A stretch of DNA of 64,000 nt, from assembly GCF_018863395.1 (NCBI RefSeq), contig NZ_JAHKRR010000008.1, positions 1-64,000 of the forward strand, written 5' to 3'. The stretch is from Sinomicrobium weinanense. Lineage in GTDB: Bacteria > Bacteroidota > Bacteroidia > Flavobacteriales > Flavobacteriaceae. A model generated the notes under the pieces. It was not told where the DNA came from and did no database searches. It saw nothing but the letters and a program-made list of their open reading frames with translations. Shown in pieces: positions 12,644 through 39,515 of this stretch. The translations under genes were made by a program, and so were the position numbers. Numbering within the stretch: position 1 is the stretch's first letter; each line of letters starts with the position of its first letter.

Positions 12644-13585
12644 CTATTCGTTAAGAATCTTTACGATCTCTTTACGGCTTACGGTATTGTTTTTTCCTTT
12701 TTTCTTTCTCGCAATAGTGGACTTGTAGTATCTGTACAGAAAATCGTAGCACACCATTTCGTGCATGCGGTTTTTGGATTTGAACAGACGGTTCATCAGC
12801 ATATGGATATAGCTTGCCATAAAATCGTTCAGCGGCTTTTCCAGTGTTTTTTCTTCCCGGTGTTTTAAGATGGTTTTTGCTACGGGAGCTATATTGTGTT
12901 TTTTTTGTTCCAGCACCTGCAGCATCGGGGCATAACCGGGATTATCTTCCGGCTGAAAAACCATGAACGCGTCTATTTTTACCCTTTGCTTACGGTATTT
13001 GTCATCCAGTTGTTTCTTTAACGGCCTGCTCATCCCGAATTCTTCGCCAAATCCGGTTTTTAATCCTTCCATCAGGGCCAGTTTTTCTTCTTCGGTATAT
13101 TGAAAGCTGTCCAGAAGGGCATCCATAGCGCGTAGGGAAAACAGCCATCTCAGTTCTTCACCTTCATCTCCTTCTATCATATCCAAAAATGCGGTTATCA
13201 TTTCACTGTCGTGGAAAAACAGGGTTTCTGCCAGCTCCATCGTATTATTTCCGTAGCGCTCGAGTTCCCTTTTGTAGGTGTCGACCTCAACCTTCCAGAT
13301 CAGGTCTTTTTCCTGATAATCCCTGAAATACGGAACCAGGCGATTGATAATTATTCCGATATTATCCGGTTTCTCATAGTGAAACCGAACCCTGAGATGG
13401 TGTTTCGGATCACCATAACGGATAAAAAACCATCGGTCTATTACCTTTTCTTCCAGCAGTTGTATGGCCACGGGACGGATGATCTCCGTAAGAATGGCAT
13501 CTGAGGTCTTAGGGCCGGCATAAATCTTATAAAATAACCAGCTATCACCGGGGATAAAATAGCGTTGTGCAGGTCTATTCTTCAT
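12644..13585 (-). CDS. Lanthipeptide dehydratase C-terminal (elimination) subunit
   Basis: A 313-residue protein of the thiopeptide-type/SpaB C-terminal family. In class I lanthipeptide synthesis this unit removes glutamate from glutamylated Ser/Thr to leave dehydroamino acids. Typical features are WLFYKIYAG near residue 16, RWFFIRYGDPKHHLRVRFH at 50-68 and a basic C-terminal half rich in helices. The start overlaps the end of the preceding LanB N-terminal gene by 11 bp, so the two are translationally coupled. In Firmicutes both domains are one protein of about 1000 residues; the split form is known from Bacteroidota clusters such as that of pinensin. It is the last gene of the cluster. Confidence 0.9.
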   Translation of the reverse strand: MKNRPAQRYFIPGDSWLFYKIYAGPKTSDAILTEIIRPVAIQLLEEKVIDRWFFIRYGDPKHHLRVRFHYEKPDNIGIIINRLVPYFRDYQEKDLIWKVEVDTYKRELERYGNNTMELAETLFFHDSEMITAFLDMIEGDEGEELRWLFSLRAMDALLDSFQYTEEEKLALMEGLKTGFGEEFGMSRPLKKQLDDKYRKQRVKIDAFMVFQPEDNPGYAPMLQVLEQKKHNIAPVAKTILKHREEKTLEKPLNDFMASYIHMLMNRLFKSKNRMHEMVCYDFLYRYYKSTIARKKKGKNNTVSRKEIVKILNE

Positions 13586-15818
13586 CTTTAAGTCTTTGGC
13601 TGTTATAAAAGGACAGCACTATCTGGTTGGCATAGTATGCATTCCTGTCGTCTTTTACTATTCCTCCTTTTCCGAAAAAAAACTCGGTGAGCTTAAAGCG
13701 CTGTCTCTTTTTAACGGTATCCAGCAGCATTCTTACGGAAGTGAGGTTTTTAAAGTTAATCAATAATTCGTTATCCCCGTCTGTCAGCATAACGTATTGG
13801 GGGATCTTTCGTTTTTTTCTGAAATTTTCTACGGCATCTTCCAGTTTTTTATCTTCTTTTATTGATCCTTTCAAGGGTTCGATATCTTCCGTGGCGAGGT
13901 TCCAGGTGGCTTCTGAAAAGATCAGGTTCTGGTATGTTATACGGGGAATAAAGGTGTATTCGTCTGCAAAAGGCCCGAGGTTGAGCCCTACTCCTCCCCT
14001 GAGCCCCTGTGTTTGCATATCGCATAGAAAATGGTAGATAGGCAGGGAATTGGTAGAATAGTTATGGGCATTGGTGAGGTGCGGGATCACTTCCTTGTCC
14101 AGTTTTCCGGACCGCAACCTTACTTTTGTACCATATTTTACGGAAATACGAAGATCTTCTATGGGCAATTGCTGTTCTCCGGGCAACACGGACTTGGCCA
14201 GATACGGGATCTCATAATGGCGAAAAGCAGGGCGCATCAATATGTTCCCCACCCGGGATTCGGGCAGGTGTACGATCTCCGCCAGTACTTTGCCGTTATT
14301 GGCCCTGGCCTCCGTATCGATGACCTTCCGGGTATGGCTATCCAGTTTTTCATCTCCATGACAAAAACGGCCGAGAAGATTAGCTGCACTGGACCCTCCG
14401 GCCCCACCGAGTTTTATTTTGATCTCCCCGTCTTCTTCTACGACTTCGATCATCGTAGAGATGGTGTCGGGCAGGTCTTCCCAGTTTTCATCAAAATCCT
14501 TAAAATCATCGCCCTGCAGGTTAATACAGTAATCTTTCCGGGCGAGGGCCTGTACCAGTTTTTGTTGCAGTACGCTGTGTACCGGGCTCCATTTTACTTC
14601 GGAGATCTGGTGTTTTAGCTTCTTTCCGGGGAGGATTAGATCGTCCACCAGCGGGTTAACGTCCCCTGTTCCCTGGTCTTGCTTATAGCCTATGCCCATC
14701 TCAACATCCAGCGCCATGGACAGAGGGACCTCTCTTTCTTCAAAACGTTCGTAAAAGGCGGTCTTAAACTGATCCAGGAGCGTCTTTTTCGGGGGAAGGG
14801 TGACCTTGTTCAAAAAACACAACCCTTTTTTTACCGCGTCCACCACGGTTTTGTCAAGGATGTTTTTTTCTGTTTCCAGGATCATATCCGTTTGAAAGAG
14901 GTATTTTAATTCGAAACTCGTTTCCAGTTGTTTTAAAAATTCGCTGAGTGTTACGTAGCTTTCCGGGGGATTTCCTATCCCTTGATCCAGTTCCTCTATT
15001 TGCGAACCGGCCCTGTTCAGGAAATCCAGCACATCTTTCGTACCTTCCAGTTTTTCCAGCACTTCCCGTATCTGTTCCAGAAACTCAGGACCGGAAACGG
15101 AGGGTTCCAGTTCACTGATCAGGAGCTGGCTCTCTACGAGTTCTTCTATAAAACCAGCGGCCTCTTCGTAGGTGATCTCATCATCTACAAGGGCTTCGGA
15201 CAGGTTTTTGAGCGACTCCCCTTTAGCGGCCTTTTCCAACAGACCGGAAAGGTATTCGGAATCGTCTACGGCCACAATATGATGATGCCGCTTGCTGTTG
15301 ACATATTTGTATTCGATATATCTTAACTGGTCTCCTGCCCGATAAATACTGGAATTGGGAAAGAAAAGCAGTTGCTCCCTGATGTTTTTGTTCTTTACCA
15401 GGTCTTGTGACAGGGCCACCAGGTAGTTCATATCGAGCCGGGTATGCCTGCGGTTATTCCGGGCGCCGCGGAGTTTTATTTCGGTCCCTTCCCCGAACCC
15501 GCCCACAGTACATCCGGCAAAAAGGCCGAAAGGTGTACACCGGGACGACATCCGGGAGAGATATTTAAGAAAGGAATACTTTAATTTTTCGGTTTTTTTC
15601 GGGTCTTTGGCCTCTCCGTTCGCCCAGCGGTTCAGCTCTTCGTACAACGGGGGAGATGCCAGGAAAACCGCTTCCTGTATTACGAGGTCTTTAAAGCATT
15701 CCTTTAGTTTTTCGTCCGGAATATCTTTTTCTGCGGTAAGGTCTTTATAAAAATCTACGGCGAACAGCGGGGTTCTCAAAACGTAATTGGGGAAATGTTT
15801 ATAAGGGTTCTTGTTCAT
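13575..15818 (-). CDS. lanB: Lantibiotic dehydratase N-terminal (glutamylation) subunit
   Basis: A 747-residue LanB N-terminal domain, which attaches glutamate from glutamyl-tRNA to Ser/Thr of the precursor. Typical segments are YVLRTPLFAVDFY at the start, SRMSSRCTPFGLFAGCTVGGF near residue 90-110, and the C-terminal block with RISVKYGTKVRLRSGKLDKE and PRITYQNLIFSEATW. It ends where the elimination-subunit gene begins (11 bp overlap), giving a two-protein dehydratase. Its own gene follows lanC after 62 bp. It probably acts in the cytoplasm on the double-glycine precursors encoded upstream. Confidence 0.92.
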   Translation of the reverse strand: MNKNPYKHFPNYVLRTPLFAVDFYKDLTAEKDIPDEKLKECFKDLVIQEAVFLASPPLYEELNRWANGEAKDPKKTEKLKYSFLKYLSRMSSRCTPFGLFAGCTVGGFGEGTEIKLRGARNNRRHTRLDMNYLVALSQDLVKNKNIREQLLFFPNSSIYRAGDQLRYIEYKYVNSKRHHHIVAVDDSEYLSGLLEKAAKGESLKNLSEALVDDEITYEEAAGFIEELVESQLLISELEPSVSGPEFLEQIREVLEKLEGTKDVLDFLNRAGSQIEELDQGIGNPPESYVTLSEFLKQLETSFELKYLFQTDMILETEKNILDKTVVDAVKKGLCFLNKVTLPPKKTLLDQFKTAFYERFEEREVPLSMALDVEMGIGYKQDQGTGDVNPLVDDLILPGKKLKHQISEVKWSPVHSVLQQKLVQALARKDYCINLQGDDFKDFDENWEDLPDTISTMIEVVEEDGEIKIKLGGAGGSSAANLLGRFCHGDEKLDSHTRKVIDTEARANNGKVLAEIVHLPESRVGNILMRPAFRHYEIPYLAKSVLPGEQQLPIEDLRISVKYGTKVRLRSGKLDKEVIPHLTNAHNYSTNSLPIYHFLCDMQTQGLRGGVGLNLGPFADEYTFIPRITYQNLIFSEATWNLATEDIEPLKGSIKEDKKLEDAVENFRKKRKIPQYVMLTDGDNELLINFKNLTSVRMLLDTVKKRQRFKLTEFFFGKGGIVKDDRNAYYANQIVLSFYNSQRLKDEE

Positions 15819-15880
15819 GGTTCGGATTTTGGGTTTACTCTGAGGAACTGTCTATTCAAAAATACATTTTTCCGGCATTT

Positions 15881-17092
15881 CTATCCTATCATCAGGCATT
15901 CATCCCATGAGTTGTCACCGGACAGGTGACTAATGATACTGAGCCCTATACCTGCGATGCCTTCCAGAAGTGTCAACTCGCCCCGCCATTCACGATCTTG
16001 TCCTCTCCATTGTTTAAACCCGGCGTAACCGTCTTCATAGACCGCTTTTTCCAGGCCATCACTGAGCCAGAAGGCTGCGGCTTCCCGGAATGCTTCTTCC
16101 CCGGTTTCGGCGTACATCCGGTTAAATATCTGTGCATTGCCGAAAGAACCATGACACAGGCCTGCATCCCTGACCATACTACTTTCGGGGGCAGTGCGAC
16201 GGGTTGCGTGTTTGAGGATCTCAACCGCAGTTTGTCCCAGTCCTGTATCTTCGAGGCTCTTTGACGCCTGCCAGAGGGAAACTCCCACTCCCGGATCGCC
16301 ATAGCACCAGGCCAGGCGGCTCGTTCTGTCATAGTCTTCACCTTCTTTGACCCAGGCGGGGAACAGGGACATGACACTGCTATCTTCATTTTTATGACTC
16401 AGGATATATGCTACCCCTCCCTTTAGCAGGGGATGCACCTGGGTCCTAAATATATCATGTTTATATAACCGTGACAAAAAATTCACGATACTGGACATAC
16501 CATGGGACAGGCTAAGATTGTACCCTTTTTCACCGGTTTCCCTGTTGAGCACAGATAACCATTTTATTTTATCGCCATCCGTTTCCGCCAGTTCGCTCAA
16601 AAGACCGATCAATTCATACAGGTGATTTTTATATCGCTCTTTCAGCCCGGCAGACCTGGTATTCCCGTACCGCTTCAGAAAATAAAAACCGTACCCCAGT
16701 GCCCCGTGCAGGAAATCGTAATTTCCCTCTTTTATATCGGAGACCATGACCCCGTGGAGGTAATGATCCAATTCGGCGAGTAATTCGTCACTTTCCGCAT
16801 CCATGAAATCCTGTTGTTCCAGGTGGTCCACCACCCAGCCTGTACCGGCCAGGCCTGAGCAATAGGTCGGAAAACCGTAGCCGTTGTTTATCCGCTCTAT
16901 ACCATCGGTAAGTATTTCCGCCCCAATATCAGCAAATTCGTCAGTGTCCAGGAATTTGGAGTAGTGGAACTGGAAGAGAGCTATTCCGGAGGTCCCCGCC
17001 AGAACCCCGGTTTGGTCGCTTTCTTTATATTTTTCCCTGAGGATATGGCTAATTTCTTTGAGTTTTGCATGAAGAAGTTCTTCTTTTTCCAT
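15881..17092 (-). CDS. lanC: Lanthionine cyclase LanC
   Basis: A 403-residue LanC-like protein that joins Cys thiols to dehydrated Ser/Thr to form lanthionine rings. The three zinc ligands are present: C263 in WCYGDPGVG, and C313-H314 in GLCHGSFGNA. The other family motifs, GLAGTGWVV near 80, FLHGALGYG near 128 and LSHGMSSIV near 195, are also intact, so it should be active. It lies between the DoxX-like membrane protein gene and lanB on the minus strand, 24 bp after the former. Confidence 0.93.
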   Translation of the reverse strand: MEKEELLHAKLKEISHILREKYKESDQTGVLAGTSGIALFQFHYSKFLDTDEFADIGAEILTDGIERINNGYGFPTYCSGLAGTGWVVDHLEQQDFMDAESDELLAELDHYLHGVMVSDIKEGNYDFLHGALGYGFYFLKRYGNTRSAGLKERYKNHLYELIGLLSELAETDGDKIKWLSVLNRETGEKGYNLSLSHGMSSIVNFLSRLYKHDIFRTQVHPLLKGGVAYILSHKNEDSSVMSLFPAWVKEGEDYDRTSRLAWCYGDPGVGVSLWQASKSLEDTGLGQTAVEILKHATRRTAPESSMVRDAGLCHGSFGNAQIFNRMYAETGEEAFREAAAFWLSDGLEKAVYEDGYAGFKQWRGQDREWRGELTLLEGIAGIGLSIISHLSGDNSWDECLMIG

Positions 17093-17116
17093 GTATTGGG
17101 TTTATGCAGGTTAAAT

Positions 17117-18400
17117 TTATCGGTTAAAGGAGTACTCATTGATCCAATGAAATCCCCGGTTAATGAGCAAAAAATCAGTCCGGTCTTTTCTTTGAAATTG
17201 TATTTTGAGGGTGTCCCTGTGGTGATAACCGTTCAACAGCAATACGCTATCTTTTACGGTATAGGTAAAATCATAAACGAAAGTCGTATCGCGGAAAGAC
17301 ACGAGTTTCAAAGTGTTGTGAACCGTATCCGTCTCATTCCTGACGTACTGGATATTTCCGTCCATTTTCTCTATACCTGTTCTCCACCTGTCTATCACCA
17401 ATCGTTTCCAGCGGTGGCCATCTTTGGTCAATGACGGCAAGGTGTCCTTTCCGGAAATAAACCGCTCCGTTTCATAAATACCGTAGAGGGCCGGGAGTGG
17501 CCTTTCTTCTCTTGTTATCTTGCCGTACAGATTACTCCCAATAATATAAATCAAAACGATCCCTTTGAAAATATACCCGGCCACATTCCAGCCTCTTTTT
17601 TGAAAATAGGGTTTTAATACAACCGGGGCAACAGGCTTGTTACGAATAAAAAAACGCAGTAGGTTCCTGGCATCCGGAAGCAGGATAAAGGCAGCCATAA
17701 GCACAAGGTGTGCCGAGTACAGTTTTACCGGCACGTCATAGCTCATATTCAGTAAAAAGACATTAAGCATAATACCAAAACACATAAGTGCTCCCAAACG
17801 TACGGTGGGCCTGAACATTAACAGTATGCCCGCGATCACTTCGGCGGCACCGGTAAAAATGGAATACGCATGGGAGTTTCCCATAAATTTCCAAAGCAAT
17901 CCCATAGGTGAAGAATTACCATGAGGTGTTATCAGGTCAAAAAGAGTGGGATCCCAGAACTGTATAAGAAATACTTTAGAGAAGCCATATGTCAACATGG
18001 AAAATGCCAGGTAATACCGGAGTGCAATGATAAGGCCGACCAGCCAGCCGGAATAATTTTTCTTCTTATGGTCCAGTAAAGACCATATCAGCACGGCAAA
18101 GGCTGCTATGCATAAACGGGTAAAAAGTTTTAAAAAATCGAAGGTCGTATCTCCGCTAGTCCGGTTTCCCCCGGGAATTTCTTCCACGATGTGAAATATG
18201 TCCTTACTGATCAGGAGAACCATCCATTGCCAGAAACCATCGATCCATGAGCTTATATGATCTCCTATTTTAAACGGAATATATTGAAACGGAAAAGGAA
18301 ATAAGAACAGTACATAATAACAAAAGACCAGGCGAAAGAGTGTTTTTTCTGCGGTATTCCATTGGGGCTCGGTAGTAGTGGTTGTAGATGGGTCAATCAT
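17117..18400 (-). CDS. DoxX/HTTM-like membrane protein of the lanthipeptide cluster
   Basis: A 427-residue integral membrane protein. The first 275 residues contain about seven hydrophobic segments and resemble DoxX/HTTM-type membrane proteins (for example LRYYLAFSMLTYGFSKVFLI near 128-147). The last 130 residues form a soluble beta-rich domain after a final membrane segment (GYIFKGIVLIYIIGSNLYGK). No catalytic motif is recognised. Its position as first gene of the DoxX-lanC-lanB group suggests a role in modification, immunity or membrane anchoring of the synthetase, but that is inference. Confidence 0.65.
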   Translation of the reverse strand: MIDPSTTTTTEPQWNTAEKTLFRLVFCYYVLFLFPFPFQYIPFKIGDHISSWIDGFWQWMVLLISKDIFHIVEEIPGGNRTSGDTTFDFLKLFTRLCIAAFAVLIWSLLDHKKKNYSGWLVGLIIALRYYLAFSMLTYGFSKVFLIQFWDPTLFDLITPHGNSSPMGLLWKFMGNSHAYSIFTGAAEVIAGILLMFRPTVRLGALMCFGIMLNVFLLNMSYDVPVKLYSAHLVLMAAFILLPDARNLLRFFIRNKPVAPVVLKPYFQKRGWNVAGYIFKGIVLIYIIGSNLYGKITREERPLPALYGIYETERFISGKDTLPSLTKDGHRWKRLVIDRWRTGIEKMDGNIQYVRNETDTVHNTLKLVSFRDTTFVYDFTYTVKDSVLLLNGYHHRDTLKIQFQRKDRTDFLLINRGFHWINEYSFNR

Positions 18401-18593
18401 AATTGTAAAAGTGAGCTATGGTAAACAAAACGACGGGAGACATCCTTTTATGCTACTTAGACTGGATGTTTTTTCCTTTTTAGGGATAAGTCTTCCGGGG
18501 AGTTTCTTTTTTCATACTCGACTTTGCTTTGGTCAATAGCTTTCTAATTTAGAAAAATTAAACAAAAACACGTCCTGTTCTTTAAAATTTAAC

Positions 18594-18636
18594 TGTAAAA
18601 ACAAAACCACCCCTGGTTTTCAACCCAAAGGTGGTT
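18594..18636 (-). terminator. Rho-independent terminator after the precursor genes
   Basis: On the minus strand ACCACCTTTGG (18635-18625) pairs along its full length, with G-U pairs, with CCAGGGGTGGT (18616-18606) across an 8-base loop, and TTTGTTTTT follows. It lies between the last precursor gene and the DoxX-like gene. It would produce short abundant precursor mRNA with limited readthrough into the modification genes. Confidence 0.85.
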
Positions 18637-18669
18637 TAGTGTTATTCCAATATTAAAAAATATTGTGTC

Positions 18670-18873
18670 TTACGGGCATCCTCCGGTAGTTCCTCCACAA
18701 TTGCCGTCTCCCGTAGCCGGGTCGCAAACTTTCATTGTTGGAGGGCTACAAACCGGCCACCAGGTCTTGCCGCAGCCATAGCTTATCCAGTCCCCTCCTT
18801 TTATCTTTTCAGAATTAAGGTCAGAGATGGTCTGTTTGTTCAGTTTAAGTGTTTTTAAACTTCTTTTTTTCAT
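18670..18873 (-). CDS. Class I lanthipeptide precursor 1 (five Cys)
   Basis: A 67-residue precursor. The leader begins MKKRSLKTLKLNKQTIS and ends in Gly-Gly at 26-27, the site expected for the C39 transporter peptidase. The core (residues 28-67, starting DWISYGCGKTWWPVC) has cysteines 34, 42, 50, 59 and 66. Each has Ser or Thr three to five residues before it (S31, T37, T46, T54, T62/T63), giving up to five small rings. It resembles the GG-Bacteroidales natural-product precursor group. Leader and the first two rings align with precursor 4. The product itself is unknown. Confidence 0.9.
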   Translation of the reverse strand: MKKRSLKTLKLNKQTISDLNSEKIKGGDWISYGCGKTWWPVCSPPTMKVCDPATGDGNCGGTTGGCP

Positions 18874-18886
18874 GATAATGGGATTT

Positions 18887-19063
18887 TTAAGAAATATTGT
18901 TACACACTGTAATACAATCTTGCTTTATGGACTGCGTAGGTCCCGGGCAGGTTTCACAACTATACCCGGTTTCTCCGCCCAGAATTTCACGGGCTGTCTC
19001 CTGATCCAGGCGGCTAATGATCTTTTTGTTCAGACTTAGGTTTTTGAGATCCTTTTTTTTCAT
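18887..19063 (-). CDS. Lanthipeptide-like precursor 2 (divergent leader)
   Basis: A 58-residue open frame translated here by hand. The leader starts MKKKDLKNLSLNKKIISRLD and ends in LGG at 28-30. The core (ETGYSCETCPGPT...) has cysteines 36, 39, 50 and 54 with nearby Ser/Thr. It shares the LNKK-IS pattern and GG with its neighbours, but residues 19-30 (LDQETAREILGG) differ and the core is unrelated to the other three, so it is a second precursor family served by the same machinery. Only 13 bp separate it from precursor 1. Confidence 0.85.
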   Translation of the reverse strand: MKKKDLKNLSLNKKIISRLDQETAREILGGETGYSCETCPGPTQSIKQDCITVCNNIS

Positions 19064-19174
19064 GGTTATCGATTTTAATCTATTTTGATATCATAGCATA
19101 GAATGCTTTTACCACACTCTTTTTTCATTTTTTACAACCCACATTCCGGGTATTGTAAAACAAAAGGGCTTAAC

Positions 19175-19330
19175 CTATCCTACACACGGTCGGGCTGCTG
19201 TACATTCCGGTGGCCAGGAACCTGTACATGCAGGACTGGTCCAGTCTTCTCCGCCCTTCAACTTTTCGGGAGTAAAGCCGGAAATCGTCTTTTTGTTGAG
19301 TTTCAGTGATTTTAAACTTCTTTTTTTCAT
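19175..19330 (-). CDS. Class I lanthipeptide precursor 3 (three Cys)
   Basis: A 51-residue open frame translated here by hand. Leader MKKRSLKSLKLNKKTISGFT then PEKLKGG, with Gly-Gly at 26-27. The core EDWTSPACTGSWPPECTAAR plus PCVG has cysteines 35, 43 and 49, each preceded at three to seven residues by Ser/Thr. It is nearly identical in leader to precursor 4 and shares SWPPxC and ARPCxG with it, so the two are recent duplicates. Confidence 0.9.
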   Translation of the reverse strand: MKKRSLKSLKLNKKTISGFTPEKLKGGEDWTSPACTGSWPPECTAARPCVG

Positions 19331-19569
19331 GATTAAAGGTTTTGGATTAAAATACAGAACCGGGTAAAAAGGAAAATGACAGATCGCTGTTCCGGATAGT
19401 ACCTACCACTCTCATTCCGGAGAGTTGTAATAAGCTATACCGGAATATTTGACGAACAAGCTATGAAACTGTTCCACAGTCGATCTGCTTCCTGTTTCCC
19501 TGTCCTGAAAAACGATAAAATAAATACATTAAACATCCTTCCGGGACCGGAAGAATTAGAGGTCATTCC

Positions 19570-19722
19570 TTAACCTATACACGGTCTTGCCTGAGAGCAT
19601 GCCGGTGGCCAGGAATCTCCACAACCGTAGGTAGGTCAGTCTCCTCCCTTTACTTTTTCGGGAGTAAAACCGGAAATGGTCTTTTTGTTGAGTTTAAGCG
19701 ATTTGAGGCTTCTTTTTTTCAT
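19570..19722 (-). pseudogene. Lanthipeptide precursor 4 broken by a stop after GG
   Basis: The frame starts with the same leader as precursor 3 (MKKRSLKSLKLNKKTISGFT, then PEKVKGGD) but codon 29 is TGA (bases 19638-19636). The frame then continues open to a TAA at 19570, and the unread part reads PTYGCGDSWPPACSQARPCI-G. Precursors 1 and 3 have Trp (TGG) just after GGD or GGED, and YGCG sits at 32-35 in both precursor 1 and this gene. A single TGG to TGA change therefore explains the defect. As written it would make only a 28-residue leader. A sequencing error is possible. Confidence 0.85.
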
Positions 19723-19770
19723 GAGAATTAAATTTTAGGATTTGGATTCTCAAGATAGCAAAAAAAATCA

Positions 19771-19778
19771 CAAATACA
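19771..19778 (-). promoter_or_regulatory. Weak candidate promoter of the precursor genes
   Basis: Minus-strand TGTATTTG is one mismatch from TAnnTTTG and lies about 50 bp before the first precursor ATG (19722), at the end boundary of the HlyD gene (stop at 19780). No clear -33 element is present. Confidence 0.3.
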
Positions 19779-19779
19779 T

Positions 19780-21096
19780 TTAATTCCGTGAAAATATTTT
19801 ATTCAATTGATAAAAGATCCGTTGCAGGATACTGAGCTCTTCCGTGATGATCTCGGCATTGCCCTGCATTTCCTGCCGGAATTCGAGTTTTTTATCAAAC
19901 GAAGTCTCCAGGCTGCCCACATTAACGTAAATGGAATATATGGCTTCTCCTTTTTTCGGAACAGCGGAGATATCGACAATATGCCCCTGCAAACTGCCCC
20001 ATTCCTGATAAGGGTAATTATCCAGTTTTATGATGACCTCCTGCCCTACCTTCACTTTCCCGGAATTCTGCACCGGCATGGTTACCTGCCCGATCAGGGA
20101 ATCGGTCTCTTCCGGCACTACTGTAAATACAATATCTCCCGCCTGTACGTTCTGGTATTTGTGGCGTATATCGAACATGGAAACCTTGCCTTTCATCGGG
20201 CTTTTTAAGATATTGGTAAGCTCCCAGTTATGGATCTCGTTCTTCAGGATTTCGAGACTTCCCTCTAATTGCTGGCGATAGCTGTAGCTAAGTTCTTCGC
20301 CCGTAATGGTAGACTGGGTCTTACTTCCACTGAGTGAAGCAATGGCAATACGGGTATTGGACACGGAACTTTTGAGGTTCTCGTATCGCTGCTTGTCTGC
20401 GAGATAACTCCTGGAGATGGTCTCGAATTCGGACCTGGAAATAACCCCCTTGTCCAGCAACGCCTTGTTCCTTGCGTATTCCGATTCGGAAAGGGCCAGT
20501 TCCTGTGCAAAGAGTTCCAGCTGATTTTGCTGTTTGTCCAGCAGCTCGTATTGCTCTTCTATTTGCTGTGTGGCTGCCATGATCTCCTGCCTGTTCGGTT
20601 CCAGTATATTAAAAAGGACATATTTCTGATATTGGGACACAAAATCGGAATAAGCCTGCCGGACGCTCCCCAGCTTCAGATGAGGCGGAAAAATGAGCGG
20701 GATGGAATCCGGGGGTATCAGGCGTGGTGTAAAATCTGACAACCTGTCCCTGAGCTTGTATACATCCCGGAGATCTGCCGTATTTTCTATCTCTGCCAGC
20801 ACCTCACCTTCTTTGACGGACTGATCGGCTTTTACAAACAACCCCGTTAACTTGCCCGAACTATTGGCTTCTATATAGGCCGGGGGTGTCCTGGTGGTGA
20901 TGGTAATACGGGCCATGATAATATCGTCATAACGAATGAGCGCACTTTCCACGATGAGAAGTACTACGATAATAAATACTACCGTAGTCCCCCAGCGGAT
21001 CATCCAGCCGGGCGCTGCTCCAAGAATCTCCTTCACCTGGTCGGAACGTTCGTCCAGGTGGTCGATCTTTTTCTTTTTCTCTTTGGTTTCACTCAT
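19780..21096 (-). CDS. HlyD-family secretion adaptor
   Basis: A 438-residue membrane-fusion protein. One transmembrane segment (TTVVFIIVVLLIVESAL near 38-54) follows a short cytoplasmic N-terminus. Then come a lipoyl-like half motif (SSGKLTGLFVKADQSVKEGE near 80-98), a long helical hairpin region (about 160-265), the second lipoyl half and a beta-barrel with VGQEVIIKLDNYPYQEWG near 355-372. It partners the ABC transporter encoded 146 bp upstream to carry peptide across the periplasm. An outer-membrane TolC partner is not encoded in the window. Confidence 0.88.
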   Translation of the reverse strand: MSETKEKKKKIDHLDERSDQVKEILGAAPGWMIRWGTTVVFIIVVLLIVESALIRYDDIIMARITITTRTPPAYIEANSSGKLTGLFVKADQSVKEGEVLAEIENTADLRDVYKLRDRLSDFTPRLIPPDSIPLIFPPHLKLGSVRQAYSDFVSQYQKYVLFNILEPNRQEIMAATQQIEEQYELLDKQQNQLELFAQELALSESEYARNKALLDKGVISRSEFETISRSYLADKQRYENLKSSVSNTRIAIASLSGSKTQSTITGEELSYSYRQQLEGSLEILKNEIHNWELTNILKSPMKGKVSMFDIRHKYQNVQAGDIVFTVVPEETDSLIGQVTMPVQNSGKVKVGQEVIIKLDNYPYQEWGSLQGHIVDISAVPKKGEAIYSIYVNVGSLETSFDKKLEFRQEMQGNAEIITEELSILQRIFYQLNKIFSRN

Positions 21097-21119
21097 TTTT
21101 TCCCTCGGCTTTAGTTTAT

Positions 21120-21214
21120 CCTGAGCCTGCCTGCACTGAGCACTTCGATAAATGATATACTGACTTTATCGAAGTGCCCGGTATATTACTTGTCGAACTG
21201 CCGAAGGGCTCAGG
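21120..21214. repeat. Composite palindromic repeat between transporter and HlyD genes
   Basis: An outer inverted pair CCTGAGC (21120-21126) and GCTCAGG (21208-21214) encloses an inner perfect 13 bp pair GCACTTCGATAAA (21140-21152) and TTTATCGAAGTGC (21165-21177). It belongs to the same TGAGC/CGAAG word family as the repeats near thiDE and in thiG, and would fold as a nested RNA structure inside the transcript. Confidence 0.6.
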
Positions 21215-21242
21215 AACCGGAAATCTAAATTCGAAAATCCTT

Positions 21243-23447
21243 TTATTCTCCCAGTTCCAACTGGTTTTTGACCAGCGTATAATAGGCCCCTTTTTTCTGT
21301 GCCAGTTCCCGGTGTGTCCCCTGTTCAATGATCTTTCCTTTTTCGAGAACGATGATCTGGTCGGCATTTTTTACCGTACTGAGCCTGTGGGCTACGATGA
21401 CTACGGTCTTCCCTTTATAGAACTCCTCCAGGTTCTCCATGATCGTCTTTTCGTTATTGGCATCGAGGGCACTGGTGGCTTCGTCAAAAAAGATGTATTT
21501 CGGGTCTTTGTATACCGAACGGGCGATCAGTATGCGTTGTCTTTGCCCGCCACTGATATTTACCCCGCTGGAGCCTATTTTGGTGTTGTAGCCCGACGGC
21601 TGTTCTTCGATAAAACCTTCTATATTGGCCACACTGACAGCATGTACCAGCCGCTCCTTGCTGATGACCCCTTCCGAATCGGACTCTGTAATATTCCGGG
21701 CTATCGTATCCCCGAAGAGAAAACCATCCTGCATGACCGAACCGCATGCCCTTCGCCACATGGTGGTGTTCAGGTTGTTCAACCGCGTATTTCCTACGGA
21801 GATGGTCCCTTCGATGGGGTCATAGAATTTGAGCAGGAGCTTTACCAGGGTGGTCTTACCGCTTCCGCTGGCACCTACTATGGCCGTTACCTTACCTTCC
21901 GGGATCTCGAAATTGAGATGATCGAGCACCAGCGGAGAAGCACTTCCGCCATACCTGAAACTGACATCCTGGAACTTAACACTTTTGTCATCCGGAAGAT
22001 CAGTTATATTATCTTCAAAAGGGTCTTCTTCATCGTCCCTGGAATGAATTTCCGCCAGCCTTTCCAAACTTATCTTGGCATCCTGCCCGGTTTGAATAAA
22101 AGTGATAAAATTGTTGATGGGAAGATTCAGTTGCCCTATAATATATTGTACGGAAAGCATCATCCCCAGGGTGAGTTCTCCTTCGATCACGGCTTTGGCA
22201 GCGATGAACGTGATCAGGATATTTTTTAATTCATTGAGAAAGCGCCCCCCGGTATTCTGCGTCTGGGAAAGGGACAACCCTTTAATGGATATCTTGAACA
22301 GGCGCACCTGGATCGCTTCCCATTCCCAACGCCTTCGCCTTTCCGAACCGTTGAGCTTGATCTCCTGCATCCCGGAAATGAGCTGGTAAAGGCTGCTTTG
22401 GTTGTCGGACGACTGGTCGAACCGCTTGTAATCCAGCTCCGCTCTTTTTTTCATAAAGAGCAGGGTCCACCCGATATAGAGTATGGAGCCGAAAAGAAAG
22501 ATGAGAAATATCCCCAGGTCGTAATAGGCCAGCACCACCCCGAAAATAACAACATTAAATGCCGAGAACAGCGTATTGAGCGTAGTGGTGGACAAAAAAT
22601 TCTGTATCCGGTTATGATCGTAGATCCGCTGAATGATATCTCCTGTATTCTTGGAGTCGAAGAACGCTATGGGCAACCGCATCAGCTTGATGAGAAAATC
22701 AGAGATCAGGTTGATGTTCACCCTGCTGGTTACATGTAGTAAAATCCAGCCCCGTATGAGCTCTACGGTGGTCTGGGAAATGAACAGGGTCAACTGGGCC
22801 ACCAGTATGAGATAGACAAAATTAAGGTTCTGGTAGTTGATCCCATAGTCTACCACAGCCTGGGTGAGAAAAGGAAAGATCAACTGGAGCAAACTGCCTA
22901 CGAGCAGGCCCAGGAATAATTGGGTCAGGTGTTTTTTATAGGGTCTGAAATACCAGAACAGGAATTTAAAGCCGTATTCTTTTTTCGTTCCCTGATCGTT
23001 TTCATAGAAATTGGGCGTAGGTTCGAGTAACAACAGGTAGCCTTCGTCGCTATCTATATCGGCGCTTTTCCCCATCCAGCCGGATACAAATTCCTTTTTA
23101 CTGTATTTCACCAACCCATGGGCCGGGTCTGCCACGTATACCTTGTCCTTTTTAATGGCGTAGACCACTACAAAATGCCGTTGCCTCCAATGCGCAATAC
23201 AGGGCAGGGGTACTTCTTGCTCCAGGGTTTTAAAATCTATGCTCACCGCCAGGGAGTGAAAACCGATGCTTTCTGCAGCTTCGGCTATCCCGCCCAGGGA
23301 TACCCCCTCGCGGGTAATATTGGCTTTCCGTCTTAAAAAATCGGTAGAATAAGACCTTCCGTAATACCGGGCTATCATCCGAAGGCAGGTAGGGCCACAG
23401 TCCATTTGATCGAGCTGCCTGTAAAACGGAAACTTCTTCAGGTTCAT
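21243..23447 (-). CDS. Peptidase C39 ABC transporter (LanT-like)
   Basis: A 734-residue bifunctional exporter. Residues 1-135 are a C39 cysteine protease domain with catalytic C17 (QLDQMDCGPTCLRM), H91 (QRHFVVV) and D107 (VADPAHG), which cuts double-glycine leaders. Residues about 160-440 hold six membrane segments. The ATPase domain has Walker A GASGSGKTT at 525-533, signature SGGQRQR near 632 and Walker B with FFDEATSALD near 652. It fits the Gly-Gly motifs of the downstream precursors. It is the first gene of the cluster on the minus strand and is divergent from a susC gene. Confidence 0.95.
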   Translation of the reverse strand: MNLKKFPFYRQLDQMDCGPTCLRMIARYYGRSYSTDFLRRKANITREGVSLGGIAEAAESIGFHSLAVSIDFKTLEQEVPLPCIAHWRQRHFVVVYAIKKDKVYVADPAHGLVKYSKKEFVSGWMGKSADIDSDEGYLLLLEPTPNFYENDQGTKKEYGFKFLFWYFRPYKKHLTQLFLGLLVGSLLQLIFPFLTQAVVDYGINYQNLNFVYLILVAQLTLFISQTTVELIRGWILLHVTSRVNINLISDFLIKLMRLPIAFFDSKNTGDIIQRIYDHNRIQNFLSTTTLNTLFSAFNVVIFGVVLAYYDLGIFLIFLFGSILYIGWTLLFMKKRAELDYKRFDQSSDNQSSLYQLISGMQEIKLNGSERRRRWEWEAIQVRLFKISIKGLSLSQTQNTGGRFLNELKNILITFIAAKAVIEGELTLGMMLSVQYIIGQLNLPINNFITFIQTGQDAKISLERLAEIHSRDDEEDPFEDNITDLPDDKSVKFQDVSFRYGGSASPLVLDHLNFEIPEGKVTAIVGASGSGKTTLVKLLLKFYDPIEGTISVGNTRLNNLNTTMWRRACGSVMQDGFLFGDTIARNITESDSEGVISKERLVHAVSVANIEGFIEEQPSGYNTKIGSSGVNISGGQRQRILIARSVYKDPKYIFFDEATSALDANNEKTIMENLEEFYKGKTVVIVAHRLSTVKNADQIIVLEKGKIIEQGTHRELAQKKGAYYTLVKNQLELGE

Positions 23448-34352: not shown

Positions 34353-37300
34353 ATGAGAACAAAGTTACGCAAGCCATTAGCGTTATTGCTGGCTTTTGTT
34401 GTGCATGTATCTTTTGCACAGGAAAAAACGATTTCGGGTACGATAACCGACCCGAACGGTCTACCACTTCCCGGAGTTAACATCGTGATACGGGGAACTA
34501 CCAGCGGCACTCAAACCGACTTTGACGGTAATTACACAATTACTGCAGAGATAGGCCAGACCCTGGTGTTCACTTATATCGGGATGACAGCTGTAGAACA
34601 AACCGTGGGAGCGGCCAACACCATTGATGTACAAATGGTAGAAGATGCTCAGGCCCTTGAAGAGGTGGTAGTGACCGCCCAGGGTATTTCCCGGGCAAAG
34701 AAATCCCTTGGATATGCTGTGAGCGAAGTATCCTCGGAAGACGTTGAGCAAAGAGCTGAAGGAGATGTGGCCAGGGTCTTGTCCGGAAAAGCATCCGGGG
34801 TAGAGATCACTTCACAAAACGGTACTTCCGGGTCCGGAACCAACGTCGTTATCCGTGGTTACACCTCTATTAACGGTAGTAACCAGGCTCTTTTTGTGGT
34901 AGATGGTGTACCTTTTAGCAGTGACACCAACACCAGTAATGAAGCTACCGGTCAGGGTTTTACAACGGGTAATGTAGGTTCCAGCCGTTTCCTGGACCTG
35001 GACCCCAACAATATCGAAAGCGTGAGTGTCCTTAAAGGCCTGGCCGCAGCAACCCTCTACGGTAGTGCCGGTAGGAACGGGGTGATCTTAATTACCACTA
35101 AGGCCAACAGCGGCAAAGGAGGCCCTAAAAAAACGGAAATTACCCTGAACACCTCTTATTTCTTTAACGAAATAGCCTCGATACCCGATTACCAGGATAA
35201 CTATGGTAATGGCTTTAACCAGTCTTTCGGGTGGTTTTTCAGTAACTGGGGACCTGCTTTCCGGCCCGATGGGGTTGATGGCTACCTAAACGACCCTGCG
35301 CAATTGATTGACGAAAACGGTACCGTAGAACACCCCTACTCTACAAGTGGTTTCCTGGCCAACTTTCTGGGCGGTAACAGTGAGCTGTCCCAACAATTTG
35401 ACGGACAACGCTATCCGTATAAGCCTTACAACAGTGTAGAAAACTTCTTTCGCACCGGGAACGTAAGCAATACCTCTTTGAATATACGTGGCGGGTCTCA
35501 GGATGGCAACGTTAATTACAATTTAAACTTCGGCCACCTGGAAGAAACAGGATTCACTCCCGGCAACACACTTACCCGAAACAATTTATCTATTGGAGGT
35601 AAGGCCAGGCTAAGTAATCGTTTTACCGTAAACGGAACTTTAAACTACTCAAGGACAAGCTACATTACCCCCCCCCGTAGCGCCGGGTGATGGTAATGCC
35701 AACTTTGGTATATCGGTATTCGGGCAAATTTTCTTTACTCCGCGAAGTGTAGACCTTATGGGGCTTCCTTTCGAAGTTCCCGAAACAGGGGGTAGCATAT
35801 ACTACCGCAATGGTAACGATATTATCAACCCTCGCTGGACCGTTAAAAATGCCCAGAACGCTCAAACGACCAACCGGGTTTACGGTACAGGGCAACTCAC
35901 CTACGATTTTAACGACAACCTGAATATAACTTATCGTGCCGGTCTCGATTTTTACAACGAAAGAAACCATGCGTACTCTAACAAAGGAGGGGTTAACAGC
36001 GATGTCGATCTCTTTGGTTTTTACAATACCTGGGACAATAATGTTAGCATATGGAACCACTATCTGGCCTTAAATGGTAATGTTACCCTAACCCATGATG
36101 AAAAATTGGGCTTAAACTTTATTGTAGGTGGTGATACCCGTGCAGAACGATTTAACAGACAGGGGGTTTCCAGTACCGGTCAGATCGTGTTCGACGTGCA
36201 GAAACACTTCAATTTTGAGAACCAAACTCCTATACAATTCATACAAAACAGAAATATAATAGGAGTATTCGGAGAGCTTTCGTTTGATTATGACAATTAC
36301 CTGTACCTTACCCTTTCCGGAAGGAATGACTGGGTTTCCAATCTTATCAGGGAAAACAACAGTAGGTTCTATCCCAGTGCCAGTGTTTCTTTTATTCCTA
36401 CTACGGCAATTGAAGGTTTTGGCGGTAGTGATAGCTGGGGAATCAACTATCTGAAAATCAGAGGAGGGGTTGGATCTTCTGCCGGTTTCCCCGAGGGGTA
36501 CCCTACGGTTAACAGCATCGTTCAGGCTACAAAACAGGACGGTGGCCTTGCGGGGGGTTCAAATGGTATAGTTACCAATTCGGTAGATAACTTCCAGGCC
36601 AACCCTGACCTGAAACCAGAGCTTATCCAGGAATGGGAAATTGGTTTTGATGCCAGGTTCCTGAAAAACATGGTTAATCTGGGGTTGTCTTATTACAGCA
36701 GATCCACTACAGACCTCATCGTATTTAAACCATTGCCTACCTCAACCGGGTTTACCCAGACCCAGGACAATATCGGTAAAGTAGAAGGAACCGGTTGGGA
36801 AGTTGACCTCGGGGTAGACATTTTCAAAAGTGGTCAGGCAGATGGCTTTAACTGGAATTCCAGGGTAAACTTCACCACTAACGAACAGATCGTTACCGAA
36901 CAAGAGGACGACCAGATCATTTATACCGGTTTTACCAATTTAGGTAACGCAGCGATAAAAGGAGAACAACTGGGAGTGATCGTCGGCACCAGGATAGAAA
37001 GAGATGAAAACGGCAACAAAGTAGTAGGGGCTGACGGTATATACAGGGGACAAGAAGAAATAGCCATCGATGCTAATGGAAACGAAGTACCTAGTGGTAC
37101 AGAAGGTTCCAGAAACATTGTTCCTATAATCGGAAATCCGAATCCCGATTACGTTATGAACTTCATCAATACCCTTTCTTTCAAAAACTTCACCCTGGGC
37201 TTTCAGATCAGTCATGTCAAAGGCGGGGATATTTATTCTCAATCCGTAGGGACATTATTAGGTCGTGGTTTAATTGTAGAGGACAGGCGCGACTCTTTTA

Positions 37301-37671
37301 TCGTACCGGGGGTTTTGGAGAACGGAGAGCCCAATACGATACAAATTGATAATGCAACATATTACTTTGACAACTTAGGGTTTAGTTCCAATCAGGAAGA
37401 AACACTGATCTTCGATGCTTCTGTAATACGTTTAAAAGAGGTTTCCCTGAGCTATAACCTTCCAAAGAAGTGGCTGGACAAAACTCCTTTCGGAAGTGTA
37501 TCATTCACCGCTTCCGGGTACAACCTTTGGTATGACGCCTACAATATGCCCGACAGGGCCAATTTTGACCCTAACGTGGCTGGTATAGGCGTAGGTAACA
37601 GCCGTGGTTTTGATTTTCTTAACGGGCCCAGTTCCAAACGGTACGGGTTGAGTGTTAAAGTCTCATTCTAA
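34353..37671 (+). pseudogene. SusC/RagA-type receptor 3, frameshifted at a C9 tract
   Basis: The first frame (34353-35690) gives 445 residues: signal peptide, regulatory domain (TISGTITDPNGLPLPGVNI), plug and early barrel. It then reads YITPPRSAG and stops. At 35668-35676 there is a run of nine Cs. With eight Cs the frame would read ITPPVAPGDGNANFGISVFG and continue without a break to 37671, giving about 1105 residues, a normal SusC length ending in VKVSF. So the gene is one base out of frame. This may be a phase-variable tract, a recent mutation or a sequencing error. Confidence 0.9.
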
Positions 37672-37709: not shown

Positions 37710-39515
37710 ATGAAAAGATTTAAATATATAATAATAGCTTTCCTTCCGGTCTTGGCCTTTTTACAAGGATGTGAGACGACAGAATTGGAAAACCTGGACG
37801 ACCCGAACAACTTAGGGCCGGATCAGGCAGACCCTGCATTGCTATTCAATTCCATCCAGACCAATTACAGGGACGCAGTGACCACCTTTAACGACATAGG
37901 AGGCGACCTGGGCAGGATAGAATATATGTTTGGCAGGGTATACAGGGAAAATTATACCGGTAGCGCTTTAAATGGGCCCTGGGCCGATTTGTACAGTGAT
38001 ATGATGCCCGATATTACTACCATTGAAAACCTGAATGCCGATGGGTCTTTAAACTTCGTTCTGGGGGCCTCTAAAGCCATGCAGGCCCATATTATGATGT
38101 TATTGATAGATTATATGGGCGACATTGTCTGGACCGAAGCTAACAACCCTGCTGAATTTCCCAATCCGACTTTGGATGACGATGAGGCTGTTTATCAAGC
38201 TGCACTAAGCCTTTTGGATGAAGCTAAAGGCCTCCTTACCCAGGACAATAGTATTGTACTCGATATGTATTATGACGGGTCTGCTGAAAAGTGGGTTCGG
38301 TTTATCAACACCTTAAAAATGAGGGCATCCCTGACTTTAGGTGATTACCAGGCTGTTATAAATGCCAGCGATGTTATCGAAGCAGATGGTGACAATATGG
38401 TATTTGAATATGGCACCAATCAATTAGAACCGGATAACAGGCACCCAGATTACTCCACCGATTACACTGCATCCGGGGCCAACGAGTACCGTTCTAACTG
38501 GTTAATGAATTTAATGTTAGGCAATGAAGGCGATGTACTTAAAGAAGACGATACCATACCTGTAACAAGATTTGATGACCCCAGGAGGAGATATTATTTC
38601 TACAGGCAAAAAGAAGTAACCCCCGGAAATTCTACTTATCTGTTCTTTGAGGGTAACGGACAGTTCTTCATCTACCCGGACGACCTCGGAGGATCGAGTG
38701 TAGATGCCCAGACACTCATCTGTTCTACCCAGGAAACACCTGCGCATATCCAATTTACCCCGGATGAAGCCTACTGGTGTTCCAATTTCCTGGGCTATTG
38801 GGGAAGAACCCACGGTAATGCCGAAGGTATCCCGCCCGATAATTTTACCAGGACCGCCAGTGGTGTTTATCCCGCCGGAGGACGCTTTGATGACAACCTG
38901 GATTGGGTTGTTCTGAGTGCAGACCAGAGTGAATTAACCCTTTACGAAGCCGGGGTAGGTATAGGATTAGGAGCCGGTGGTGCCGGTATTGAGCCCATTA
39001 TCCTCTCTTCCTTTATAGAGTTTTGGAGGGCAGAAGCCTATTTTAAACTGGGCAACAACAGTATGGCCGCGGAGCATATGATGGAGGGATTGAAAGAATC
39101 TATTAACTATGTAGCCAGTTTTGGCCCGCGTGATGGTTCAGCCAACCTGTCATTTGCTCCAAGCGAGAAACACATCGAGGATTTTATTAATTCCAAAATG
39201 GACGAATTTACCAACGCAAGCAACTCCACTTCCCTGGGTTCCGATGGGTGGCCTACAACAAAAGATAAAATGGATATCATGGGAGAACAATTTTTCGTTG
39301 CCATGTATGGCGCTGGTGCCGATGCCTATAATTTTATAAGGCGAACCGGCTACCCGAGGACGTTGGCAAGGAGTATTGAGCCTAATCCCGGAACTTTCCC
39401 GAGATCATTGTTGATCCCCGCCAGTGAAACGGGAGCAAACGAGAACATTTCTCAGAAACAAGACCTTCAAACACAGGTATTCTGGGATTCAGGAGTTACT
39501 AATCCAGCGAACTAA
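37710..39515 (+). CDS. SusD/RagB-like surface lipoprotein 3
   Basis: A 601-residue SusD-like_2 type lipoprotein, lipobox cysteine C21 (LQGC), then DDPNNLGPDQADPALL. It is longer than locus 1's 481 residues, with an insertion around 280-390 that includes RRRYYFYRQKEVTPG and FTPDEAYWCSNFLGYWGR. The C-terminal region has the family's ISQKQDLQTQVFWDSG ending. Its frame is intact although the upstream partner susC is frameshifted, which favours a recent or reversible lesion in that gene. Confidence 0.9.
   Translation: MKRFKYIIIAFLPVLAFLQGCETTELENLDDPNNLGPDQADPALLFNSIQTNYRDAVTTFNDIGGDLGRIEYMFGRVYRENYTGSALNGPWADLYSDMMPDITTIENLNADGSLNFVLGASKAMQAHIMMLLIDYMGDIVWTEANNPAEFPNPTLDDDEAVYQAALSLLDEAKGLLTQDNSIVLDMYYDGSAEKWVRFINTLKMRASLTLGDYQAVINASDVIEADGDNMVFEYGTNQLEPDNRHPDYSTDYTASGANEYRSNWLMNLMLGNEGDVLKEDDTIPVTRFDDPRRRYYFYRQKEVTPGNSTYLFFEGNGQFFIYPDDLGGSSVDAQTLICSTQETPAHIQFTPDEAYWCSNFLGYWGRTHGNAEGIPPDNFTRTASGVYPAGGRFDDNLDWVVLSADQSELTLYEAGVGIGLGAGGAGIEPIILSSFIEFWRAEAYFKLGNNSMAAEHMMEGLKESINYVASFGPRDGSANLSFAPSEKHIEDFINSKMDEFTNASNSTSLGSDGWPTTKDKMDIMGEQFFVAMYGAGADAYNFIRRTGYPRTLARSIEPNPGTFPRSLLIPASETGANENISQKQDLQTQVFWDSGVTNPAN

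What the first reader, a model, noticed from the sequence alone, without database searches (positions are those of the whole stretch)
12644..23447. Complete class I lanthipeptide cluster with four precursors and a split LanB
Seen: on one strand, a C39-peptidase ABC transporter, HlyD, four small GG-leader genes, a DoxX-like membrane protein, LanC with all zinc ligands, and LanB as two overlapping genes. Known: split LanB occurs in Bacteroidota such as the pinensin producer. Inference: this makes two or more ring-bearing peptides with cores I do not recognise, by cutting after GG during export. No immunity gene of the LanFEG type is present; the DoxX-like protein is the only unexplained member.
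Basis: partly seen in the sequence, partly recalled or inferred. Interest (0 to 1): 0.8.

Follow-up and report, generated by a model that had tools for sequence, protein, structure and literature searches.

The report
Lanthipeptide cluster with two broken precursors
A bacterium of the genus Sinomicrobium carries a gene set for making ring-bearing export peptides of a kind already described in its phylum, but one of its four peptide genes carries a stop codon and a fifth has been overwritten by an unrelated membrane-protein gene.

Summary
On the minus strand at 12644-23447 lie a C39-ABC exporter, HlyD, GG-leader precursors, a 427-aa DoxX-like protein, LanC with its zinc-ligand motifs, and LanB as two overlapping genes. 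Three points change the picture. (1) Precursor A1 (19570-19722) has an in-frame TGA just after the GG site, where three congeners encode Trp; only A2, A3 and A4 are intact. (2) Those congeners carry the cluster at the same purE-purK locus WITHOUT the DoxX-like gene; a fifth precursor, A5, sits there. The window keeps a frameshifted A5 leader (18515-18438), then the DoxX-like gene. So the 'unexplained member' is a lineage-specific insertion on a destroyed precursor; its family was beside LanB/LanC in 0 of 100 neighbourhoods examined (at least 3 places counted twice). (3) Bacteroidetes class I precursors with GG leaders and C39 proteases are published, as is split LanB; a 'pinensin-like' cluster with split dehydratase and 24-aa core is in print for a strain of the S. 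oceani species and is most likely this cluster's ortholog. Verdict: new member of a known kind; precursor birth-and-death is the modestly interesting part. Product and activity are untested.

The parts
21243..23447 (-). C39-peptidase ABC exporter (734 aa), predicted to cut leaders after GG during export
   Evidence: PF03412, PF00664, PF00005; catalytic motifs; matches the solved ABC-type bacteriocin transporter 4ry2 over residues 4-727, E 4.7e-104; 92-95% identical in three congeners
19780..21096 (-). HlyD-type adaptor (438 aa)
   Evidence: PF13437, TIGR01843 below its cut-off; 85-88% identical in three congeners
19570..19722 (-). Precursor A1, interrupted: leader ends KGGD, then in-frame TGA, then a conserved 21-aa core remainder
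   Evidence: the three congeners encode Trp there; downstream of the stop 7 synonymous and 0 non-synonymous codon changes against G585
19175..19330 (-). Precursor A2, intact; core EDWTSPACTGSWPPECTAARPCVG
   Evidence: orthologs 94% (G585) and 90% (S. pectinilyticum) identical, none seen in S. oceani; 11 synonymous and 1 non-synonymous core changes against G585
18887..19063 (-). Precursor A3, intact; core ETGYSCETCPGPTQSIKQDCITVCNNIS
   Evidence: NF038153 29.1 bits against cut-off 22
18670..18873 (-). Precursor A4, intact; core DWISYGCGKTWWPVCSPPTMKVCDPATGDGNCGGTTGGCP
   Evidence: orthologs in three congeners
18604..18637 (-). Terminator-like hairpin after A4
   Evidence: 13-pair stem then T run; -21.1 kcal/mol, z -3.25
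18438..18515 (-). Remnant of a fifth precursor leader (A5), frameshifted, core missing
   Evidence: alignment to A5 of three congeners; no match to the G585 A5 core above shuffles (best 20, shuffled maximum 27)
17117..18400 (-). DoxX-like protein, presumably membrane, with C-terminal lipocalin-like barrel (427 aa); lineage-specific insert at the A5 position
   Evidence: absent from the orthologous clusters L086-L088; model pLDDT 84.6; barrel residues 303-405 match 4qrl at Z 8.8, 2.6 A over 91 residues
15881..17092 (-). LanC cyclase (403 aa)
   Evidence: PF05147 159 bits; WCYG 262, CHG 313; only PF05147 match in the genome at E 0.001
13575..15818 (-). LanB N-part, glutamylation domain (747 aa)
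   Evidence: PF04738 485 bits; PDB 9g04 E 4.3e-40, NisB 4wd9 E 1e-23
12644..13585 (-). LanB C-part, elimination domain (313 aa), overlapping the N-part gene by 11 bp
   Evidence: PF14028 255 bits, TIGR03891 256.6 bits against cut-off 48.45

Best explanation
A class I lanthipeptide cluster of the Bacteroidota GG-leader type, found at the purE locus in four Sinomicrobium genomes. Inferred working: LanB-N glutamylates Ser/Thr of precursors A2, A3 and A4, LanB-C eliminates glutamate to give dehydro-residues, LanC joins cysteines to them, and the C39-ABC/HlyD exporter removes the leader after GG. The precursor array evolves by gain and loss: in this genome A1 has a recent in-frame stop and A5 was frameshifted and its core replaced by an unrelated DoxX-like gene, which is most likely a passenger rather than a biosynthetic or immunity part. 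Shown: the genes, motifs, orthologs, stop codon and A5 remnant. Inferred: dehydration, rings, cleavage, export and any biological activity.
For: Families and motifs. The same exporter, LanC and LanB genes, without the DoxX-like gene, in three of the five other genus genomes searched, all beside purE/purK. Intact A1 and A5 in those three. A5 remnant. DoxX-like relatives: no LanB or LanC in 20 of 20 neighbourhoods and 80 of 80, with at least three places in both sets. The window DoxX copy lies outside the well-supported clade of the genus's groEL-linked copies (100/99). Published types (PMC7268733, passages) and sister-species cluster (PMC10112250).
Against: No expression or chemistry. The DoxX-like gene is intact and ends 24 bp before LanC, so it could have been kept for a function in the cluster. 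The stop in A1 could be a sequencing error: no reads and no second strain were available. Two of the six genus genomes have no LanB-N match at E 1e-10, so inheritance throughout the genus is not shown. The congeners' precursor sets differ (S. oceani shows no A2; G585 has an additional A1-like gene, another order, and an insert between LanC and LanB-N). Only A3 of the intact precursors passes the curated leader model.
Confidence: 0.82

Rival explanations
1. The DoxX-like protein is a recruited immunity or accessory factor: a membrane domain with a lipocalin-like barrel that binds the peptide or lipid and protects the producer, replacing the LanFEG/LanI function.
For: Intact gene placed inside the operon 24 bp before LanC; the model has long helices and a lipocalin-like barrel; no LanFEG found among 39 scanned ORFs.
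Against: Three congeners have the same cluster without it, G585 having no homolog in its genome at E 1e-5; 0 of 100 neighbourhoods of its relatives hold LanB/LanC (at least 3 places counted twice); it sits on a broken precursor.
Confidence: 0.13
2. A1 is still made: the TGA is an assembly error, or is read through at a low level with Trp, restoring the ancestral core.
For: After the TGA the core shows 7 synonymous and 0 non-synonymous changes against G585, and 8 and 1 against G587; relatives have Trp exactly there.
Against: A recent stop predicts the same pattern; G585 carries another A1-like gene (A1b) with an in-frame stop further along its core, at the position of the second conserved Trp (by eye), which points to ordinary gene death; no recoding element was looked for.
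Confidence: 0.15
3. The whole cluster is decaying and no longer makes product.
For: Two of five precursors are dead in this genome; the A5-LanC spacer, with a hairpin seen by eye in the congeners, is gone.
Against: LanB-N, LanB-C, LanC, HlyD and ABC are all full-length and 70-95% identical to the congeners; A2 and A4 cores change mostly synonymously.
Confidence: 0.08

Closest known systems
Bacteroidetes class I lanthipeptides with LxLxKx5L leaders, many ending in GG, often with a C39 protease (Walker et al. 2020, PMC7268733; passages seen)
   Same: Leader motif in A3 and A4, GG ends, C39-ABC exporter; the paper also notes split LanB in a number of class I clusters, as in pinensin
   Different: A1 and A2 leaders have F instead of the last L; the DoxX-like insert; one stopped and one truncated precursor
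Pinensin-like cluster of Sinomicrobium sp. PAP.21, a strain of the S. oceani species (PMC10112250; part 1 of 2 of the text read, which holds the whole announcement)
   Same: Genus; split pinB1/pinB2; pinA to pinC and pinT homologs; 24-aa core, equal to the length after GG of A1 in the S. oceani type strain (counted)
   Different: The core sequence of PAP.21 is not printed in the text, so orthology is inferred; the window's A1 is stopped; homologs of Cpin5321-5324 and Cpin5330-5332 were not tested here
Pinensins of Chitinophaga pinensis (Mohr et al. 2015; not held; known here only through citing papers)
   Same: Class I, split LanB, Bacteroidota
   Different: Core sequence not available to me; not compared

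Membership tests
Class I lanthipeptide cluster | LanB dehydratase with glutamylation and elimination domains | tested here: met
   PF04738 485 bits and PF14028 255 bits, on two genes; NisB and 9g04 matches for the N-part, 9g04 for the C-part
Class I lanthipeptide cluster | LanC cyclase with zinc ligands | tested here: met
   PF05147 159 bits; C263, C313, H314 motifs, aligned to the 8byk and 3t33 chains; ligand role recalled
Class I lanthipeptide cluster | Leader-core precursors with Ser/Thr and Cys in the core | tested here: met
   A2, A3, A4 cores with 5 S/T + 3 C, 7 S/T + 4 C, 7 S/T + 5 C
Class I lanthipeptide cluster | Lanthionine rings in the product | not testable with these tools
   needs mass spectrometry
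Bacteroidetes GG-leader class I subgroup (NF038153) | Leader passes the curated model | tested here: inconclusive
   A3 29.1 bits passes cut-off 22; A4 16.9 and A2 13.2 do not; A1 no hit
Bacteroidetes GG-leader class I subgroup (NF038153) | C39 protease in the cluster | tested here: met
   PF03412 129 bits
Pinensin family | Split LanB | tested here: met
   747-aa and 313-aa genes overlapping by 11 bp
Pinensin family | Core peptide homologous to pinensin A/B | not tested
   pinensin sequence not found in the parts of papers seen
DoxX family (PF07681) | Score above the gathering cut-off | tested here: not met
   16 bits against 23.6; called DoxX-like only

The most novel reading that the evidence does not exclude
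The in-frame TGA of A1 is functional: leaky decoding as Trp keeps a low, set amount of the A1 peptide relative to A2-A4, or the leader-only 28-residue product acts on LanB in trans.
Probability: 0.05. Interest if true: 0.7.

Novelty: new member of a known kind. Interest (0 to 1): 0.25.

Why it matters
It removes a false lead (a DoxX-like protein as a lanthipeptide part) and gives a small example of precursor birth-and-death: conserved enzymes and exporter, with leader genes gained, stopped and overwritten between species of one genus. The three intact cores and the congeners' A5 are concrete targets for heterologous production.

Tried and rejected
Rejected: DoxX-like gene as a conserved cluster member. 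Rejected: recent duplication of the genome's own groEL-linked copy (52% identical; tree). No conserved neighbour explains the DoxX-like family: among 100 neighbourhoods (6 kb either side) the commonest linked neighbour group recurs in 17.

Led nowhere: search of a genus I guessed to be Chitinophaga for a split LanB like that of pinensin (30 of 36 genomes have matches at 1e-40; no listed match has a frame of 735-772 aa; three listed frames are shorter, the rest over 1000 aa). Literature on DoxX with lanthipeptides: four papers in the search listing; one read in passages concerns bufferins, another kind of RiPP. A search for lanthipeptide precursor pseudogenes listed six papers, none opened for that question. 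The Foldseek search of the PDB gave no match at E 0.001 or better; the barrel match comes from the second look, and nothing is claimed about the fold of the helical part. The SusC/SusD pair beside the cluster resembles what is reported near pinensin-like clusters, but SusC1 was found in only one of three congener loci (L086), whose flanks beyond the exporter are about 3, 4 and 6.5 kb.

Choices made: the 20 DoxX neighbourhoods fetched are the own paralog and 19 other genomes of the 26 with matches over most of the length; six such genomes (G026, G082, G093, G148, G162, G168) were not fetched. The 80 are the best of 464. For the tree I named 28 rows; 20 passed my length and motif filter and were used (18 different). 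Of the LanB matches, 43 span from residue 50 or before to residue 700 or beyond (my count from the listing); 8 of those 43, the window included, have frames of 735-772 aa.

Full report
WHAT IS THERE. On the minus strand the order is C39-ABC exporter, HlyD, A1, A2, A3, A4, DoxX-like, LanC, LanB-N, LanB-C. The family matches are far above cut-offs for LanB-N, LanB-C, LanC and the C39 peptidase; catalytic and zinc-ligand motifs are in place. This is not chance.

THE FOUR PRECURSORS. A1 is interrupted by an in-frame TGA directly after KGGD. G585, S. pectinilyticum and S. oceani encode Trp at that point (the S. oceani leader is one residue longer there and starts with GTG). Beyond the stop, the window differs from G585 by 7 synonymous and 0 non-synonymous codons, and from S. 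pectinilyticum by 8 and 1, so the stop is recent, or an error. A2, A3 and A4 are intact. Core changes in A2 are 11 synonymous and 1 non-synonymous (G585) and 7 and 3 (S. pectinilyticum); in A4 they are 13 and 5, 15 and 5, 11 and 5 (G585, S. pectinilyticum, S. oceani); the A4 leader against S. oceani shows 8 and 10, so not every part is tightly held. The congeners' sets differ: G585 has A1, an A1-like gene (A1b), A3, A2, A4, A5; S. pectinilyticum A1, A2, A3, A4, A5; S. oceani A1, A3, A4, A5. A1b of G585 has a GTG start and an in-frame TAA at the position of the second conserved Trp of A1 (by eye), a different place from the window's TGA; death of such genes has happened more than once.

THE DOXX-LIKE GENE. 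In the three congener clusters (L086, L087, L088) nothing resembling it is found. In its place is a fifth precursor, A5 (KGGxETAIGCNTDEY...), between A4 and LanC. In the window, after the A4 hairpin, the A5 upstream region and leader are still recognisable at 18515-18438 (58 of 78, 61 of 77 and 53 of 78 aligned bases identical; scores above all 1000 shuffles in each case), with a 2-base deletion near the start; the A5 core (that of G585 was tried) is absent. The DoxX-like ORF begins 37 bases after the aligned leader stretch. Its family is common: 26 of 199 genomes of the bacterial family have a match over most of its length and 45 of 199 have any match at 1e-5 (my count for the 26); 464 confirmed places exist in genome contigs. 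None of 20 neighbourhoods and none of the best 80 (56 of these loci are longer than 15 kb) contains LanB or LanC by tblastn at 1e-3; at least three places occur in both sets. In two congeners and in the window genome itself another copy lies near groEL, and the window copy is not part of that clade; its own placement in the tree is not firm. The predicted model (pLDDT 84.6) has long helices, presumably membrane, and a C-terminal barrel resembling lipocalin-like proteins (best Z 8.8, 2.6 A, 91 residues, to a Bacteroides lipocalin-like protein; middling, shared by many barrels). I read it as a passenger inserted at a dead precursor; an immunity role is the main rival.

REGULATORY DETAIL. A strong terminator-like hairpin follows A4 (-21.1 kcal/mol, z -3.25; one of 200 shuffles folds as well) and a weaker one follows A1 (-12.7, z -1.23). 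By eye, hairpins also follow A1, A4 and A5 in the congeners. They may set how much precursor is made relative to enzymes; this is inference. The scan found 19 terminator-like sites against 14.3 expected, so single sites are weak evidence.

KNOWN OR NEW. Walker et al. 2020 (PMC7268733; passages) describe a number of Bacteroidetes class I precursors with an LxLxKx5L leader, many ending in GG, with a C39 protease often in the cluster; separately they note split LanB in a number of class I clusters, as in pinensin. Riyanti et al. 2023 (PMC10112250) report a pinensin-like cluster with split pinB1/pinB2, pinT and a 24-aa core in a strain at 98.89% ANI to S. oceani. The S. oceani type strain has one LanB-N match, and its A1 core after GG is 24 aa (counted), so that published cluster is most likely the ortholog; the text I read gives no core sequence, so this is inferred. 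Split LanB is a minority form: 8 of 43 near-full-length LanB-N matches in 395 genomes of the class (my count). Searches on DoxX with lanthipeptides (4 papers listed) and Sinomicrobium with lanthipeptides (10 of 550 listed, PMC10112250 first and the only one holding 'Sinomicrobium') showed nothing closer.

VERDICT. A real class I lanthipeptide cluster, a new member of a known kind. GG leader with C39 and split LanB are both established; the unexplained DoxX-like gene is explained as an insertion; the precursor count is three intact, one stopped, one truncated.

Noticed in passing
window 34353-37671 (+): A SusC-type TonB receptor appears as two ORFs (plug part 34353-35690, barrel part 35758-37671) before a SusD at 37710, suggesting an interrupted gene; part of an array of three SusC/SusD pairs from 23845 on.
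   Followed up: no
L086 9511-11993: In congener G585 the same lanthipeptide cluster carries a different insert, one long ORF filling most of the 2.5-kb stretch between LanC and LanB-N (S41-peptidase-like by my reading, not searched).
   Followed up: no
L086 6799 on: G585 has an additional A1-like precursor (A1b) with a GTG start and an in-frame TAA at the second conserved Trp position: another dead precursor in the genus (by eye).
   Followed up: partly
L089 (S. pectinilyticum, G587:C150): A second, divergent split-LanB lanthipeptide cluster (LanB-N 53% identical) with its own GG-leader ORFs.
   Followed up: no
L162, L166, L171, L173, L183, L186: The DoxX-like/lipocalin-barrel family reaches MAGs labelled Acidobacteria-type lineages, Eremiobacterota and Phycisphaerales at 36-39% identity, so it may be widely transferred; binning errors not excluded.
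   Followed up: no
window 19535-19556 and 18604-18637 (-): Hairpins follow A1 and A4 between precursor genes; similar hairpins seen by eye in congeners.
   Followed up: partly
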